Part shown: one piece after another, positions 38,260 to 46,061 of the stretch
How positions within the stretch are numbered: position 1 is the first letter of the stretch
Layout: every line of letters begins with the position of its first letter
NCBI GenBank assembly: GCA_951828385.1
Contig: OX639973.1
Span: 930,001-994,000, forward strand
Direction of reading: 5' to 3'
Source of the DNA: an uncultured Poribacteria bacterium
Lineage (GTDB): Bacteria; Poribacteria; WGA-4E; WGA-3G
Length of the DNA stretch: 64,000 bases
Notes under the pieces: generated by a model
Databases searched by the model: none
Seen by the model: the letters and a program-made list of their open reading frames with translations, nothing else
What the model was told of the DNA's origin: nothing
Made by a program: the position numbers and the translations under genes

Positions 38260-39753
38260 CTAACGGAGGAACACAAACGTTACAATCACAAAGAGTGGGA
38301 CTAAGATTGCGACCGACCAGATCATATACCCGAAGAAGCTCGGCATGCGGATACCACTTTGTTCTGCAATTGATTTCACCATGAAATTCGGTGCATTGCC
38401 GATATAGGTATTCGCGCCCATAAAAACGGCACCCACCGAAATGGCGGTTAGCAATTTAATAAACTCTAAGTGCTGTGCATCGACTAATTGTCCAGTCAAT
38501 ATCTCCGGTACGACAGATTCAGTGAGATGTAATTTTCCGAGTGCCGTATTATAGAACGTCAGATACGTAGGCGCGTTGTCTAAGAAGCTCGACAGGACCC
38601 CTGTTACCCAAAAATAGTGAACCGGTTCTTTGATTGCCAGAATTAGCCCACTCAACACCCCGTTTTCACCCGCCTTTAGAATCGCCAACGCCGGAATAAT
38701 TGTCATAAAGATACCGGCGAATACCTTTGCCACCTCTTCAATGGGTTCCCATGAGAACTCGTTTGATTGCCGCAATTCACCACTAAAGGGTGTAAACCTG
38801 AGCGACAATAATCCCATGACGACAATTAAGACATCGCGGGCGATATTCTGCCAGTATACATGGACACCGAGAATGTTGACCTCTCCCCACTTGAAGGTTC
38901 CGCTCATCAGGACTGCGGCAACGATGCCGAGCAGGAAGACGAGGTTGAAAAGTCCTTCTACGCGAATCGGCTCGCTGGTGCCATCATCTGGTACGACCCC
39001 GCCTTCGCGTTTAAACATAAACGTGTCTACAATAAAGAAGATCACAATTAAGATAACACTAATAAACAACATGTGCGGGAAGAGTGCCGTCGTTGTCCAG
39101 AAGAACGGCACACCGTGCAGGAATCCCAGAAAGAGCGGTGGATCGCCCAAAGGCGTTAAAGATCCCCCGATGTTGCTCACGAGAAAGATAAAGAAGACAA
39201 TGAGATGGACTTTGCTCTTCCGGTATTCGTTTGCTCGAATCAGAGGACGGATGAGGAGCATTGACGCGCCGGTCGTTCCGACCCACGAGGCGATAGCCGT
39301 ACCGATAAGCAATAAGAGTGTATTAACGATGGGTGTGCCACGCAACGTGCCACGCACGAGAATCCCACCTGCGACCGTGAATAATCCCCATAACAGAATG
39401 ATGAACGGGATATAGTCTATCAGGTAGATGTGCAGGATGTCGTAAAAAGCCTCTCCTCGAAAAGCAACGAGATATGGGATTGCGAAGGCTGATGCCCATA
39501 CCAAAGACATTTTCCCGCCGTGGTGGACAAGAAAGTGTGAATCCAACACGAGTGGAAAAATTGCGATTGAGAGCAAAATACCGACAAATGGGATAATACT
39601 CCAGATAGGTAATTTTGCGCCATCGACGCCATGCCCGTGATGTGCGCCTTCGGCACCGTGTGCGTCATCTGCCCCGAACGCCTCCATCGAAACCGAAAGG
39701 GCAAGCCCAACAATTACACAAAGAATCAGACAAGATACAAGTTTGAACTTCAC
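38260..39753 (-). CDS. NhaD-like Na+/H+ antiporter embedded in the nuo cluster
   Basis: The 497-residue protein has a signal-like first helix (SCLILCVIVGLALSVSMEAFG), a His-rich segment near residues 30-50 (HGAEGAHHGHGVDG) and about 12 membrane segments of the ion-transporter superfamily (NhaD/ArsB/CitMHS). IGGSLTPLGDPPLFLGFLHGVPF, FLDNAPTYLTFYNTA and FMGANTYIGNAPNFMVKSI are typical. It exchanges Na+ for H+ in characterised relatives. The GTG start is immediately next to the stop of nuoM, so it is part of the nuo transcript. It is not a complex I subunit. Confidence 0.85.
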   Translation of the reverse strand: MKFKLVSCLILCVIVGLALSVSMEAFGADDAHGAEGAHHGHGVDGAKLPIWSIIPFVGILLSIAIFPLVLDSHFLVHHGGKMSLVWASAFAIPYLVAFRGEAFYDILHIYLIDYIPFIILLWGLFTVAGGILVRGTLRGTPIVNTLLLLIGTAIASWVGTTGASMLLIRPLIRANEYRKSKVHLIVFFIFLVSNIGGSLTPLGDPPLFLGFLHGVPFFWTTTALFPHMLFISVILIVIFFIVDTFMFKREGGVVPDDGTSEPIRVEGLFNLVFLLGIVAAVLMSGTFKWGEVNILGVHVYWQNIARDVLIVVMGLLSLRFTPFSGELRQSNEFSWEPIEEVAKVFAGIFMTIIPALAILKAGENGVLSGLILAIKEPVHYFWVTGVLSSFLDNAPTYLTFYNTALGKLHLTESVVPEILTGQLVDAQHLEFIKLLTAISVGAVFMGANTYIGNAPNFMVKSIAEQSGIRMPSFFGYMIWSVAILVPLFVIVTFVFLR

Positions 39754-41322
39754 TTACTTCGTCTCTGCCTCCTTTTCACTTTTTTCATCCTGTATGTGCT
39801 GTGTTCCGTGTAGTGCGAGTTTGGGATCTCGCGGCTTCTGTTTTTCCAATCGTCCCATAGCAGGTTCAGTCGTCTGTACTTTTGTCACAACAATCCCTAC
39901 GGATTTTTCCATCTTACTCAGGAAAGGCTTCGGATAAACACCAATCCAGACGATGAACAGCAGCAGTGGCAGCATCACGACGATTTCACGAGCGTTCAAG
40001 TCAGGTAAGTTTTCGTTTGTTTTATCGAGTGTTCCGAACATCACCCGCTGGAACATCCACAGCATATATACGGCTGCGAGGATCACACCTGCGGTAGCGA
40101 AAACGACATGTACTTTAGAGAACGCTCCCCGAACAAAACTGCCGAACAGTATCATATATTCACCGACGAATCCGTTCAAACCCGGTAATCCAATCGATGA
40201 CAACGTCACAATCATAAAAATTACGGCGAAAATCGGCATCCGCTTTGATAAGCCACCGAAATCAACAATCATTCTGCTGTGCCGTCGCTCGTAAATCATC
40301 CCGACCAAGAGGAACAGTGCTCCGGTGCTTAAGCCGTGGTTAATCATTTGCAGCACGCTACCCTGAATACCTGCGGCACTTTGAGAAAAGAGTCCCAACA
40401 CGACAAAACCGAGGTGACTGACACTGGAGTATGCGACAAGTTTTTTGAGATCCGGCTGGACCATCGCCACCAATGCGCCATAGATGATGCCGATGACAGC
40501 GAGTGTGACGATCAAGGGTGTAAATTTTTCCGCTGCATCAGGAAAGAGTGGTAGACAAAATCGGATGATCCCGTAGGTTCCCATCTTTAGCAAGACACCG
40601 GCAAGGATAACACTTCCGACTGTTGGTGCCTCAACGTGCGCATCTGGGAGCCATGTATGGAATGGGAACAGCGGTACTTTAATAGCAAACGCGATAAAAA
40701 ACGCGAGGAATAGTAGATCCGAATGCTCAAAGGATCCGCTTAGCGTCGTTAGGTCAAAACTATTATCGTTCTGAAAATAGAGTGCTAAAATCCCGACCAA
40801 CATGAGTGCGCTGCCCGCCATCGTATAGAGAACGAACTTGATAGTGGCGTAAATCCGACGCTCTCCGCCCCAAACACCGATGAGGAAATACATCGGAATC
40901 AGCATCGACTCCCAAAACACGAAAAAGAGGAACAGATCGAGGGAACAGAAAACACCTAACATCCCAGTTTCGAGTGCGAGGAGCGACATCATAAAACCGC
41001 TCAATCCTTTGTCAATCGAATCCCATGCGGCGAGAATACATACGGGGGTTAGGAATGTCGTAAGCAACACCAACCACAGCGAAATACCGTCAATACCAAT
41101 ATGGTAGCTTATGCCTAAACTGGAAATCCAGTTTTCTTGCGTAACATATTGGAACGTGCCGGTGTCTGCGTTAAACCCGGTGTAAAGCCCCAGCGAGATA
41201 ACAAAGGTGAGTACCCCAATGCCAAGTGCAATGGTTTTGATAGCAGTAGCACCCAAGCCTCTGAGCAGTGCGATTGCTATCACGCCGAGTAGTGGTAAAA
41301 AAATGACTATTGAAAGTAACAA
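39754..41322 (-). CDS. nuoM: NADH-quinone oxidoreductase subunit M
   Basis: The 522-residue protein is the second antiporter-like membrane subunit of complex [65 protein letters not shown] and [14 protein letters not shown] are conserved. The C-terminal about 40 residues are charged and soluble ([10 protein letters not shown]), which is longer than usual. The start is a TTG at 41322 with AAGGAG 8 bp in front. Confidence 0.95.
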
Positions 41323-41340
41323 ATAGAAACTCCTTTTTTA

Positions 41341-41460
41341 TAGTTCTCGGTTATCGGTTGTCAGCCGTCGGTTAAGAGACTCTTGTGTAACAATTGCTGG
41401 AGTACTTCAAGAATATGAAAACCTCTGAACTGATAACCGATCACTGACAACTGACAACTA
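41341..41460. repeat. Heptamer-repeat inverted element A
   Basis: The 120-bp block starts with TAGTTCTCGGTTATCGGTTG and ends with CTGACAACTGACAACTA. The two ends are imperfect reverse complements built of TTGTCAG-type heptamers. It occupies the gap between nuoM and the tiny membrane genes. There is no coding capacity. Confidence 0.6.
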
Positions 41461-41472
41461 CTTCATAAAGGG

Positions 41473-41574
41473 TTAATTTTTATTAGCGTAGTTTATGGCA
41501 TCTCTTACAATAACCCCGAGTCCACCGAGCAATGCCACAACTGTAAATACTGCAATCCATTCTGCCCAACTCAT
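41473..41574 (-). CDS. Very small single-helix membrane protein (33 aa)
   Basis: This 33-codon gene begins with MSWAEWIAVFTVVALLGGLG and ends with RDAINYANKN: one membrane helix with a short charged tail. The ATG at 41574 follows a good GGAGG located in the last codons of the upstream gene, and is only 3 bp after that gene's stop, so translation is coupled. It is too short for usual gene calls but has all the signs of a real gene. It lies between nuoL and nuoM on the same strand. The function is unknown. Confidence 0.65.
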   Translation of the reverse strand: MSWAEWIAVFTVVALLGGLGVIVRDAINYANKN

Positions 41575-41577
41575 GTC

Positions 41578-41802
41578 TCAGTCCTCCAATTGATTAATCT
41601 TTCGATATGCGACCCGATTGATGCCAATAGAAATGAGCATAAAAATAAGAGCACCAAGCGTATTGAGTATAAGTAGCACCCGGGTGGTTTTTCCATAGTT
41701 CTGAAGTACCCAAGCTCCTTCGGAGAGAGTAGTGGCAATAGACATAGCAAATATCACTTTTAACCACCCAATTTCTTCTTTGAGCTTATTGTTGTGTTCC
41801 AT
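41578..41802 (-). CDS. Small two-helix membrane protein (74 aa)
   Basis: This 74-residue protein starts MEHNNKLKEEIGWLKVIFAM and has two membrane helices (about residues 14-32 and 40-60), with an NYGK turn between, and a charged C-terminus (RKINQLED). The ATG at 41802 has TAGGTG upstream; a GTG three codons earlier is less likely. It is followed 3 bp later by the 33-aa gene. This pair of small membrane genes recurs, to my recollection, as a unit in other bacteria, but I cannot name it. It sits inside the nuo cluster. Confidence 0.65.
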   Translation of the reverse strand: MEHNNKLKEEIGWLKVIFAMSIATTLSEGAWVLQNYGKTTRVLLILNTLGALIFMLISIGINRVAYRKINQLED

Positions 41803-41879
41803 AAACCGCACCTACCGGGCCTGGAGATCTAAAATCGACAAGAGAAATTATATGGCACAAGCACCTACCATCCATTGAC

Positions 41880-43766
41880 TTAAGTGAAAAACAGATAATA
41901 TGCAAGGAATATCACAATTCCGAGAACCATCGAGACAATATACACTTGGACGAGACCTGTTTGGAGTCGTCGCAACAATCCACCAATAAACCTGATCAGA
42001 GCAGCCACGCCGTTGACAATTCCATCAATAATGCCGTTATCCACCAATTTCCACAAGAGGAAATGAGAACCGTTTTTGACCGGTTGCACGATGAGTGCGT
42101 TATAGATTTCATCAACATAGTACTTGTTCGCGAGCAGTCTATGGAATGCCCCGGTAGGTTCATCGGACGGTACGCGTTTGCTATAACGTGTCCATGCGAA
42201 CGCAATGCCCGCCAAGCCGACAATCGATGAAATTACCATAAACAAGATAACATTGCCCGATGCGTCATGGTGTGCTTCTGGGAAAACGCTCTTCGTGAAA
42301 TGGTGGAACCAACTGTCATGTCCGCCCCAACCTAATAATCCGATCAAGGCAGAAGGGATCGCCAGAATTGCTAAGGGTAGCCACATAATTGCCGGCGATT
42401 CGTGCAGATGTGAAGCGACCTCGGAATCAACGCGAGATTCACCGTAAAATGTCACGAAGATGAGACGGAACATATAGAAGGCTGTCAGGAATGCTGTGAC
42501 CAATCCGATACCATAAATTAGGGAGGAACTCCCCCACGCGCTGTGCAAGATTTCGTCTTTGCTCCAGAAACCGCTTAGGAACGGGAACCCAGCAATAGCA
42601 AGGGCACCCACTAAAAAGGTCCAATGCGTTATCGGCATTTTCGATTTCAAGCCGCCCATCTTCCGCATATCCAATTCATTCGCCATGGCGTGCATTACAC
42701 TGCCAGCGGTCAGGAACATCAACCCTTTAAAGAAGGCATGCGTTACCAAGTGGAAAACGCCAGACGCATAGGCACCGACCCCGACACCGACGAACATATA
42801 CCCGAGTTGACTGACAGTGGAATAGGCGAGTATGCGTTTGATGTCGTTCTGTGTGAGTGCGATGGTTGCGGCGAAGAATGCTGTTAAAACACCGATCCAT
42901 GCGACGACCTGTCCAGTATCTGCTATTTCATAAAGCACAGCGGAGCGCGCTATCATATACACACCCGCCGTAACCATTGTCGCGGCGTGAATCAAGGCAC
43001 TGACAGGTGTTGGACCTTCCATAGCGTCGGGTAGCCATACATAAAGCGGGATCTGTGCCGATTTACCAATCGCGCCGACGAAGAGTAGCAACGTCGCAAT
43101 TACGAGTGTATTTGCACCGAAAATTTGCTCGAAAGTACCAGCCTCGGCTCTATCAAATATGGCTGTGAAATCTAAGGTATTAAACGCTGCAAATAGGGTG
43201 AACATCCCCAGCAGAAAACCGAAATCGCCAATCCGGTTCACGATGAATGCCTTTTTTCCAGCGTCCGTCGCCGACTGTTTATCATACCAGAATCCGATCA
43301 GCAGATAAGAGCAGAGCCCAACGCCTTCCCATCCGACAAACATCATCAGATAGTTGTTGCCGAGGACGAGGATGAGCATTGCGAAAACAAATAGGTTCAG
43401 GTAGGCAAAATAGCGTGTATAGCCTTCATCGCCGTGCATGTAGCCGATCGAATAGACGTGGATGAGGAAACCGACACCGGTAATGACTAACAACATGACT
43501 GCTGTGAGTGCGTCCACACGGAATCCGATATTGAAAGCGAACCCTTCGCCTGTGATCCACGGATACAGTGTTTCATCGAGCGGCGCAGCACCGCCGTTCA
43601 AACTGGTGAAAGCGATAATTGAACAGACTAAGGAGACCAGCACTGCAAGCGCGCCGATCCAGCCGCTCAGTTTCTCGTTACCTTTTAGCCATTTTCCAAA
43701 TAACCCGTTAATCAGAAACCCAACAAGCGGGGCAACTAATAAGACAACAATTAGTTCTTTCGACAT
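41880..43766 (-). CDS. nuoL: NADH-quinone oxidoreductase subunit L
   Basis: The 628-residue protein is the distal proton-pumping subunit of complex I, with about 16 membrane helices and a long lateral helix near the C-terminus. FRVDALTAVMLLVITGVGFLIHVYSIGYM, FVGWEGVGLCSYLLIGFWY, PLYVWLPDAMEGPTPVSALIHAATMVTAG and RILAYSTVSQLGYMFVG are conserved. AGGATAAAAT precedes the ATG. Confidence 0.96.
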   Translation of the reverse strand: MSKELIVVLLVAPLVGFLINGLFGKWLKGNEKLSGWIGALAVLVSLVCSIIAFTSLNGGAAPLDETLYPWITGEGFAFNIGFRVDALTAVMLLVITGVGFLIHVYSIGYMHGDEGYTRYFAYLNLFVFAMLILVLGNNYLMMFVGWEGVGLCSYLLIGFWYDKQSATDAGKKAFIVNRIGDFGFLLGMFTLFAAFNTLDFTAIFDRAEAGTFEQIFGANTLVIATLLLFVGAIGKSAQIPLYVWLPDAMEGPTPVSALIHAATMVTAGVYMIARSAVLYEIADTGQVVAWIGVLTAFFAATIALTQNDIKRILAYSTVSQLGYMFVGVGVGAYASGVFHLVTHAFFKGLMFLTAGSVMHAMANELDMRKMGGLKSKMPITHWTFLVGALAIAGFPFLSGFWSKDEILHSAWGSSSLIYGIGLVTAFLTAFYMFRLIFVTFYGESRVDSEVASHLHESPAIMWLPLAILAIPSALIGLLGWGGHDSWFHHFTKSVFPEAHHDASGNVILFMVISSIVGLAGIAFAWTRYSKRVPSDEPTGAFHRLLANKYYVDEIYNALIVQPVKNGSHFLLWKLVDNGIIDGIVNGVAALIRFIGGLLRRLQTGLVQVYIVSMVLGIVIFLAYYLFFT

Positions 43767-44325: not shown

Positions 44326-44853
44326 TTAGTTTTCTTCCTGATTCCCGCGTTTTACTAAGACGATAACGCCAATCAATGCCGCTAATAAAATAAGTGAGGT
44401 AACCTCAAACGGTAAAAGATACTCGTTGAACAAGAGTTCACCAATGTTATAGGTCGTGGTGTTTACGGATTCGGTAGCAGTTTCCGCCGATGCGACTGCG
44501 GGGTCGTTGATTGCATTCACTGCGATATAGACCCCTTCGATGGCAAGGAGGATGCCAAGGATCACCGCAAACCCTTTCAGTTTCCGACTCATAGCCCCCT
44601 TCGCCGAGAGTGTGCCGAGGTTCAGGAGCATAATCACAAAGAGGAATAGGACCATGATTGCGCCAGCATAGACAATTACTTGGACAGCTGCAACAAAATG
44701 CGCGCCGAGTAGGACAAACAGACCTGCTTGTGCGAAAAACGTCACAATAAGCGAAAGCGCGCTATAAATTGGATGTCGAAACGAGATAACAGCAATAGCA
44801 CCAATCAACGAGACTGCCCCAAAGAGAATAAATAGAATTTGTTCTGGATTCAT
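44326..44853 (-). CDS. nuoJ: NADH-quinone oxidoreductase subunit J
   Basis: The 175-residue protein has five membrane helices with the typical FRHPIYSALSLIVTFFAQAGLFVLLGAHF and AGAIMVLFLFVIMLLNL, which form the flexible half of the proton-linked quinone path. The ATG at 44853 has AGGAGG 7 bp upstream; a GTG two codons earlier is too close to that site. It is 11 bp after nuoH, where nuoI would normally lie. Confidence 0.93.
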   Translation of the reverse strand: MNPEQILFILFGAVSLIGAIAVISFRHPIYSALSLIVTFFAQAGLFVLLGAHFVAAVQVIVYAGAIMVLFLFVIMLLNLGTLSAKGAMSRKLKGFAVILGILLAIEGVYIAVNAINDPAVASAETATESVNTTTYNIGELLFNEYLLPFEVTSLILLAALIGVIVLVKRGNQEEN

Positions 44854-44864
44854 TCGCACGCCTC

Positions 44865-46061
44865 CTACTCTATCGCGTCTAACGCGCTGGGTGTAATTTG
44901 CCGGTCGTTATCCGGTATTGCTGGCTCAGGTGCCTTGTTCATGACCAGCAGCCCTGCCACAATCGATACAACAATAAACGCGGCTACGACATTGCCGATA
45001 CCGACAACCAGACGAGAACCAGTGGTTATCCATAGGGTACCGGTTACGACGATGGAAGTCAAAACGATAGGCAACAGGAATTTCCAACCGAAGTTCATAA
45101 GTTGATCATATCGGAATCGCGGGAGTGTCCATCGGACCCAGATAAACACGAACAGGAAAATCGCTGTTTTGACGAAAAAGATACCGAACGAAATAAGTCC
45201 ACTCCATACAGGACCGCCGACATTCTCCAAGCCGAAGAAGTGCCATCCGCCTAAGAAGAGTGTCACCACTACAGCGGATCCGACAATCATGTTCATGTAT
45301 TCCGCCATAAAAAACATCGCGAATTTCATGCTGCTGTATTCGGTGTGATATCCTGCGACGAGTTCCTGCTCGGCTTCTGCGAGGTCAAACGGCAAGCGGT
45401 TCGTCTCTGCGAACATTGCGGTTGTAAATGCGAGAAATGCGGGGAAGTGAATTAGGAAGTTCCATTGCCACAGATATGCCCCTTGTTCTATAGCGATTGT
45501 CCGAAGGCTGAGTGCGCTGCCCGTCGCGCTGTCCGTCAGCATTAGCACACCAATGATTCCCAATCCGAGTGTCAATTCGTAACTAATCATCTGTGCTGAT
45601 GACCGTAGACCGCCTAAAAGCGAATACTTGTTATTCGATGCCCATGCGCCAAGCACAACGCCATAAACGCCAAGAGACGTTATCGCCAAGACATACAGAA
45701 TACCGATGTTGATGTCTGCAATCTGGAGATTGATAGTTTCTCCAAACAGTTCTATTGAACTCCCAAATGGCACGACTGCGACCGTAATAAGTGCTGGTAC
45801 CAAGAGCATTGCCGGGGCAAGCACATAAAGCGGCTTATCCACATGATTCGGGATGAGATCCTCCTTAAACATGAACTTAAGCCCATCTGCGATAGGTTGG
45901 AGCAGCCCTTGGGGGCCAACACGGTTCGGTCCCAGTCGATCTTGCATCCATCCACTCACTCGGCGTTCTGCCCAGATCATCGCCATTACGCCAATAATCA
46001 ACAAGTGGGCAATGAAGAGAATTTTGATGATTGGAATAATAATATCTGGTAATAGCTCCAT
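44865..46061 (-). CDS. nuoH: NADH-quinone oxidoreductase subunit H
   Basis: The 398-residue protein anchors the quinone chamber of complex I. RRVSGWMQDRLGPNRVGPQGLLQPIADGLK, ETNRLPFDLAEAEQELVAGYHTEYSSM and the RWTLPRFRYDQLMNFGWKFLLP segment are canonical. About eight membrane helices. AAGGAG precedes the ATG. Confidence 0.96.
   Translation of the reverse strand: MELLPDIIIPIIKILFIAHLLIIGVMAMIWAERRVSGWMQDRLGPNRVGPQGLLQPIADGLKFMFKEDLIPNHVDKPLYVLAPAMLLVPALITVAVVPFGSSIELFGETINLQIADINIGILYVLAITSLGVYGVVLGAWASNNKYSLLGGLRSSAQMISYELTLGLGIIGVLMLTDSATGSALSLRTIAIEQGAYLWQWNFLIHFPAFLAFTTAMFAETNRLPFDLAEAEQELVAGYHTEYSSMKFAMFFMAEYMNMIVGSAVVVTLFLGGWHFFGLENVGGPVWSGLISFGIFFVKTAIFLFVFIWVRWTLPRFRYDQLMNFGWKFLLPIVLTSIVVTGTLWITTGSRLVVGIGNVVAAFIVVSIVAGLLVMNKAPEPAIPDNDRQITPSALDAIE

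What the first reader, a model, noticed from the sequence alone, without database searches (positions are those of the whole stretch)
41473..41802. Coupled pair of tiny membrane genes between nuoL and nuoM
A 74-residue two-helix protein and a 33-residue one-helix protein are separated by 3 bp, with the ribosome binding site of the second inside the end of the first. They interrupt the usual nuoL-nuoM order on the same strand. They could be complex I accessory subunits, assembly factors, or an unrelated cassette such as a stress peptide pair. The 33-aa gene is below normal gene-calling size.
Basis: partly seen in the sequence, partly recalled or inferred. Interest (0 to 1): 0.6.

Follow-up and report, generated by a model that had tools for sequence, protein, structure and literature searches.

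The report
Coupled pair of tiny membrane proteins
Two tiny membrane-protein genes tucked inside a respiratory operon belong to an unnamed, widespread pair whose two genes are translated together, and its smaller half often survives without its partner, which suggests a self-contained membrane module rather than a part of the respiratory enzyme.

Summary
Both ORFs are real genes. On the minus strand a 74-aa two-helix gene (41802-41578) is followed after 3 bp by a 33-aa one-helix gene (41574-41473), between nuoL and nuoM. The pair is a conserved two-gene unit with no above-cutoff Pfam or NCBIfam entry. It occurs in Poribacteria, Proteobacteria, Campylobacterota and other bacteria, on two small plasmids and one prophage. 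Of 71 intact first genes in 80 named loci, 70 carry the peptide gene directly behind; 56 overlap by one base. A Shine-Dalgarno is kept inside the last codons of the first gene far beyond chance (66 of 70 against about 16 expected). Both genes are mostly under purifying selection. Surroundings differ everywhere (about 40 unrelated upstream genes), so it is not a general complex I part, although two of the Poribacterial sites lie in nuo operons. Dependence is one-sided: the first gene is never intact without the peptide (41 of 41 in 84 Poribacterial genomes), while 45 of 105 peptide copies stand alone without a stop inside. My best guess is a toxin-antidote-like membrane pair, hairpin dependent or harmful, peptide protective; function is untested. 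A peptide-centred physiological role is the main rival.

The parts
41578..41802 (-). 74-aa protein ('hairpin'): two transmembrane helices, N and C termini predicted cytoplasmic; stop codon included
   Evidence: homologues; AlphaFold2 two helices 2-34 and 41-73, mean pLDDT 91.6; charge topology
41473..41574 (-). 33-aa protein ('peptide'): one transmembrane helix, acidic/aromatic N terminus, basic C terminus; stop codon included
   Evidence: homologues behind 70 of 71 intact hairpin genes; paired copies and stand-alone copies under purifying selection at most loci
41582..41587 (-). Shine-Dalgarno GGAGGA of the peptide gene, inside the L-E-D codons at the end of the hairpin gene
   Evidence: Sequence; GGAG in the last 18 nt of 66 of 70 hairpin genes against 16.0 expected from synonymous reshuffling, maximum 28 in 2000
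41575..41577 (-). 3-bp spacer GAC between stop and start (most relatives: one-base overlap TGATG/TAATG)
41880..43766 (-). nuoL, upstream neighbour (77 bp from its stop to the pair)
39754..41322 (-). nuoM, downstream neighbour (TTG start)

Best explanation
A conserved two-gene membrane module that happens to sit in the nuo operon. SHOWN: two protein-coding genes; tight, selected translational coupling (Shine-Dalgarno inside the first gene, start overlapping stop in most relatives); many genomic positions behind unrelated genes; one-sided dependence, the hairpin gene never intact without the peptide gene in 84 Poribacterial genomes while the peptide often persists alone or in extra copies. INFERRED: the two proteins meet in the inner membrane (hairpin N-in/C-in, peptide N-out/C-in) and form a complex made co-translationally; the hairpin alone is costly or harmful (for example it perturbs the membrane) and the peptide is its antidote, so loss of the hairpin is tolerated and loss of the peptide is not. 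In the window the pair has no promoter above chance and would be made from nuo transcripts. The module-level claim is about 0.9 likely; the confidence below is for the toxin-antidote-like mechanism.
For: Pairing: 70 of 71 intact hairpin genes in 80 named loci, 27 of 27 intact in 30 Campylobacterota loci (lenient small-ORF rule), 41 of 41 in 84 Poribacterial genomes (one search finds 40; the 41st, G024:C30, has its peptide ORF). Reverse dependence: of 105 peptide hits 40 sit behind an intact hairpin, 8 behind a broken one, 10 are second copies, 47 have none within 600 bp (2 of these broken); 18 of 52 peptide-bearing genomes hold no intact hairpin, 13 no trace, and no genome the reverse. Peptide survives hairpin decay: L092, L087, G000:5466k; L206, hairpin split by an inserted gene with its C-terminal relic still before the peptide. 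Coupling. Extra peptides in tandem: Campylobacter coli plasmid and the 10 second copies. Purifying selection: paired hairpin pN/pS 0.14-0.38, peptide 0.00-0.28 apart from one two-sequence set at 0.54. Scattered sites. Plasmid and prophage copies. Short overlaps are enriched among subunits of heteromeric complexes (PMC10666635, abstract read).
Against: No function was tested. Rare on mobile elements: by tblastn 2-3 of 72,556 plasmid records and 1 of 50,697 phage records, none in four viral-contig scans. No defence-gene enrichment beside 12 Campylobacterota loci; the 12 control loci had more hits. Stand-alone peptides at kamA, nuoN and phyH loci remain constrained (pN/pS 0.07-0.15), also, weakly, in genomes without any hairpin (13 synonymous, 13 nonsynonymous private codons, P about 0.01 against neutrality; not different from genomes with a hairpin, P=0.33). 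A pure antidote should drift there, so the peptide may have its own role. The sulfatase-locus copies are relaxed (0.50-0.72), and some stand-alone copies have lost their start (L190, L261). Related genomes are not independent. One named locus (L111) has an intact hairpin and a frame-shifted peptide.
Confidence: 0.4

Rival explanations
1. Peptide-centred physiological module: the single-helix peptide is the working part (a small regulator of membrane proteins, as CydX or CioY are for oxidases) and the hairpin is an optional partner that places, stabilises or regulates it.
For: Peptide is usually the more constrained partner; it stands alone under constraint at kamA, nuoN and phyH loci and in 18 of 52 genomes without an intact hairpin. 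Small single-helix subunits are a known kind (CioY, PMC11955535, passages read).
Against: No constant neighbour whose product it could serve: about 40 unrelated upstream genes. Several copies per genome and patchy presence. Does not by itself explain why the hairpin never stays without the peptide.
Confidence: 0.3
2. Complex I accessory subunit or assembly factor.
For: Window pair between nuoL and nuoM; another Poribacterial pair (L055) and seven stand-alone peptides (L189, L193, L199, L200, L246, L255, L258) behind nuoN of a second complex I; two other sites lie by NuoE/F/G-like formate dehydrogenase genes (L104; L075/L076).
Against: Only 1 of 80 named loci beside nuo; 26 of 30 nuoL loci lack any trace at nuoL-nuoM, though 3 of those 26 do not reach nuoM; the hairpin is lost repeatedly at nuo sites. 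Profile match to ND4L in the PDB is not significant (E 0.47).
Confidence: 0.06
3. Phage-exclusion or other anti-phage membrane pair.
For: Pair in a Helicobacter canis prophage; patchy distribution.
Against: No PADLOC match, no defence enrichment around 12 loci, absent from viral-contig scans.
Confidence: 0.1
4. Peptide is the toxin (like type I membrane toxins) and the hairpin its antitoxin.
For: Size, single helix and basic tail resemble type I toxins such as TisB (recalled).
Against: 45 stand-alone peptides without a stop inside and 13 genomes with the peptide and no trace of a hairpin, several loci under purifying selection.
Confidence: 0.07

Closest known systems
Two-gene toxin-antitoxin modules (as reviewed for type II, PMC2701414; search listing only)
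   Same: Short coupled two-gene unit, patchy, many genomic sites, several copies per genome, one-sided retention as with orphan antitoxins (concept: PMC7354431, search listing only)
   Different: Both products predicted to be membrane proteins; no known toxin or antitoxin fold; rarely on plasmids or phages; toxicity not tested
Type I membrane toxins (TisB, Hok, Fst; recalled)
   Same: Peptide is about 30 aa with one hydrophobic helix and a basic tail
   Different: No antisense RNA known here; partner is a protein; the peptide persists alone
Small oxidase subunits CydX and CioY (PMC11955535, passages)
   Same: About 30-aa single-helix membrane peptide, operon-encoded
   Different: No fixed partner enzyme; no oxidase genes beside the pair were noticed
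Unidentified reading frames in nuo operons of Rhodobacter and Paracoccus (recalled)
   Same: Small genes inserted among nuo genes
   Different: Here the pair is known from many other places
Pfam DUF6962 and 8xMP, NCBIfam SLATT domains
   Same: Weak generic two-helix similarity
   Different: All below the curated cut-offs

Membership tests
Complex I accessory subunit/assembly factor | Co-occurs with nuo genes across hosts | tested here: not met
   1 of 80 named loci beside nuo; traces at nuoL-nuoM in 4 of 30 loci
Complex I accessory subunit/assembly factor | Physically part of complex I | not testable with these tools
   Needs proteomics or a structure
Protein toxin-antitoxin module | Two adjacent, co-expressed genes | tested here: met
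   Adjacency 70 of 71; Shine-Dalgarno selection; expression itself not measured
Protein toxin-antitoxin module | Presumed toxin not found without its antitoxin | tested here: met
   41 of 41 intact hairpins with peptide in 84 genomes; one exception, L111, in the named set
Protein toxin-antitoxin module | One product toxic, the other neutralises it | not testable with these tools
   No expression data
Protein toxin-antitoxin module | Common on mobile elements | tested here: inconclusive
   Two to three plasmids and one prophage only; no viral contigs
Known anti-phage defence system | Match to a PADLOC profile or location in defence islands | tested here: not met
   No profile match; no enrichment near 12 loci against 12 controls
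Pfam/NCBIfam/PHROG family | Match above the curated cut-off (Pfam, NCBIfam) or a strong PHROG match | tested here: not met
CydX/CioY-type oxidase subunit | Encoded with terminal oxidase genes | tested here: inconclusive
   None noticed among the neighbours printed; not searched by profile

The most novel reading that the evidence does not exclude
A broad, unnamed class of selfish or conflict modules in which harmful agent and antidote are both tiny integral membrane proteins, coupled at the start/stop codon, that take their expression from arbitrary host operons; hosts repeatedly delete the harmful half and keep the antidote as chromosomal immunity.
Probability: 0.25. Interest if true: 0.8.

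Novelty: new variant of a known kind. Interest (0 to 1): 0.55.

Why it matters
A pair of genes of 75 and 30 codons recurs in many bacterial phyla, often sits in several copies per genome, is tightly coupled and conserved, yet has no above-cutoff Pfam or NCBIfam entry, and the smaller gene lies below normal gene-calling size. The one-sided retention gives a direct test: does the hairpin harm a cell unless the peptide is present? If so, it would be a two-protein antagonist/antidote system lying wholly in the membrane; if not, it reveals a widespread small-protein regulator.

Tried and rejected
Complex I role: weighed and set aside. Defence-island association: tested on part of the material, not supported. 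Structure: the hairpin folds as a plain helical hairpin; the fold search in BFVD found nothing with E below 0.001; the tethered read-through model is only moderate (pLDDT 77, pTM 0.58) and I draw nothing from it; a first alignment of tethered, hairpin-only and peptide-only rows misaligned and was not used. PHROGs and PDB profile searches gave no convincing match. Rfam: nothing in 40900-42200. Promoter scan: 2 found, 1.9 expected. Literature: nine searches on the concept and one on the sequence motif KEEIGWLK found no description of the pair; the library lacks most subscription journals. A peptide profile for Campylobacterota (A9) was too weakly conserved, so the orphan count was not repeated there.

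Rows dropped: in the pN/pS work, L190 and L208 and L190, L208, L248, L261, L263 were left out as lacking the start or broken. Hairpins outside 70-80 aa were not counted as intact (9 of 80); L111 was dropped from the Shine-Dalgarno test. L112 is a MAG labelled Klebsiella and L105/L106 carry the same hairpin and peptide in two bins, so organism labels of MAGs are unsafe. Toxin-antitoxin genes near several pairs were recognised by eye only, not counted.

Full report
OBSERVATION. I call the 74-aa product 'hairpin' and the 33-aa product 'peptide'. The window lies in a 6.66-Mb single-contig genome; its closest named relatives in the homology scan are Candidatus Poribacteria, so I take it to be a Poribacterium by inference.

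BOTH GENES ARE REAL AND BELONG TOGETHER. The hairpin has homologues at two other places in the same genome, one intact (49% identity) and one broken. A scan of 84,980 species' genomes for KEE[IL]G[WI]LK gave 197 stretches, of which 94 encode relatives and 80 were kept: about 35 Poribacteria, the rest mostly Gamma-, Beta- and Deltaproteobacteria, Campylobacterota, Nitrospirales, Binatia, Desantisbacteria and Cytophagales bins. In 71 of the 80 the hairpin is intact, and 70 of these 71 have a peptide ORF at spacing -1 (56), +1 (8), 0 (4), +2 (1) or -4 (1). The exception, L111, has MEWF and then another frame. In Campylobacterota, 30 of 298 genomes carry the hairpin; of the 30 loci, 27 are intact and all 27 have a hydrophobic ORF of 22-50 codons within 26 nt (this ORF rule is lenient). 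Sixteen genomes behind named loci hold 1 to 7 hairpin copies each, some of them broken.

SELECTED COUPLING. In 66 of 70 hairpin genes GGAG lies in the last 18 nt, against 16.0 expected (maximum 28 in 2000) when synonymous codons are redrawn; the codon three from the end is GAG in 59 of the 60 cases where it codes for E, while GAG:GAA is 36:129 elsewhere in these genes. Where the protein end changes from LEEL to IGEI or IGEL the motif persists through other codons (L079, L091, L098, L217). One-base and four-base overlaps are the arrangement known to couple translation by termination-reinitiation (PMC6728339, search listing and start of abstract; PMC10666635, abstract).

PROTEIN-LEVEL SELECTION. 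In orthologous paired loci pN/pS is 0.14-0.38 for the hairpin and 0.00-0.28 for the peptide, with one two-sequence set at 0.54.

NOT A COMPLEX I PART IN GENERAL. Thirty nuoL loci, the window included, were compared. A DUF5069 gene (Pfam PF16798, E 1.2e-15) is found in 22 of them. Only four carry a trace of the pair: the window (both genes), L133 and L122 (peptide alone, 94% and 91% identical; L122 begins with GTG) and L138 (broken peptide). Three of the 30 loci do not reach nuoM. Of the 80 named loci only L055 is beside nuo genes. Upstream neighbours fall into 40 sequence groups among 101 loci that have a same-strand ORF of 100 aa or more within 150 bp (a few of these ORFs may be spurious), including sulfatase, lysine 2,3-aminomutase, alpha/beta hydrolase, PhyH, aldehyde:ferredoxin oxidoreductase, formate dehydrogenase, UvrB, YrdC, pseudouridine synthase and a glutamine amidotransferase (Pfam; the PhyH call rests on L049, while the L065-type upstream gene gave no Pfam match), at gaps down to a few bases. 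One reservation: at least eight species carry the pair or the peptide behind nuoN of a second complex I (L055, L189, L193, L199, L200, L246, L255, L258), so two of roughly a dozen Poribacterial sites are nuo operons. That is more than I would expect by chance, but it is noticed after the fact and not formally tested.

ONE-SIDED DEPENDENCE. In 84 Poribacterial genomes the hairpin profile matches 41 genomes and the peptide profile 52. Of 105 peptide hits, 40 follow an intact hairpin, 8 a broken one, 10 are second copies behind a pair, and 47 have no hairpin within 600 bp (2 of these broken). All 41 intact hairpins have a peptide: one search finds 40, and the last, in G024, is visible. Thirteen genomes have the peptide and no trace of a hairpin; no genome has the reverse. 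Stand-alone peptides often keep the Shine-Dalgarno relic of the hairpin's end: 19 of 29 have GGAG or GAGGA within 20 nt. In L206 the hairpin is split by an inserted gene and its last codons still precede the peptide. Stand-alone peptides at the kamA, nuoN and phyH-like loci are constrained (0.10, 0.15, 0.07), those at the sulfatase locus less so (0.50). In genomes without any hairpin the private changes are 13 synonymous to 13 nonsynonymous, below neutrality (P about 0.01) and not significantly different from 31:18 in genomes with a hairpin (P=0.33). These counts come from related genomes and are not independent events; a few copies counted as unbroken have lost the ATG (L190, L261).

ANATOMY. 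AlphaFold2 gives two long helices, 2-34 and 41-73, mean pLDDT 91.6. Positive residues average 3.5 in positions 1-15, 1.0 in the loop and 3.1 at the C terminus of the hairpin, and 0.1 at the start against 3.0 after position 20 of the peptide: hairpin N-in/C-in, peptide N-out/C-in by the positive-inside rule (recalled). In the window no promoter above chance was found, so expression probably comes from nuo transcription.

MECHANISM. What never loses its partner and what does not need it is the pattern expected of a harmful part and its antidote; coupling would ensure that no hairpin is made without peptide, and tandem extra peptides fit a dosage of protection. Against this, the pair is rare on plasmids (2-3 of 72,556 records) and phages (1 of 50,697), defence genes are not enriched near 12 Campylobacterota loci (18 PADLOC families matched among 75 neighbour proteins, against 73 families among 68 control proteins), and the peptide is conserved in its own right. 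I commit to the toxin-antidote-like reading at 0.4, with a peptide-centred regulator at 0.3.

NOVELTY. No Pfam or NCBIfam match reaches its curated cut-off, no PADLOC profile matches, no PHROG match is convincing, and no PDB or viral-structure match is significant. Ten paper searches found no description of the pair; most subscription papers are not in that library.

Noticed in passing
nuoL-nuoM gap in relatives, e.g. L119-L131: A DUF5069 gene occupies the nuoL-nuoM gap in most relatives (22 of 30 loci) but is missing in the window; its order relative to the peptide gene differs between L122 and L133.
   Followed up: partly
window 38260-39753 (-): A CitMHS_2-type transporter gene lies between nuoM and nuoN, starting directly after nuoM.
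   Followed up: partly
window 44326-46061: No nuoI-like ORF of 90 aa or more was seen between nuoH and nuoJ in the ORF list.
   Followed up: no
window 41330-41470: Spacer between the pair and nuoM is rich in short direct and inverted motifs of the GATAACCGA/GACAACTGA type; similar strings occur in relatives' spacers.
   Followed up: no
L189, L193, L199, L200, L246, L255, L258, L055: The peptide gene (or pair, L055) lies behind nuoN of a second complex I in at least eight Poribacterial species.
   Followed up: partly
L192, L195, L058, L070, L210, L105: By eye, DNA methyltransferase genes follow closely behind the peptide gene at three unrelated loci.
   Followed up: no
window 41719-41721 (codon 28 of the hairpin gene): The window hairpin departs from near-invariant positions (E28 where others have L, N5 where most have D), so this copy may be drifting although intact.
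   Followed up: no
L063, L068, L069, L071, L075, L109, L117, L220, L236: By eye, toxin-antitoxin-like genes (PIN, MNT/HEPN, RelE, Phd) lie within a few kb of many pairs outside Poribacteria; not counted against controls.
   Followed up: no
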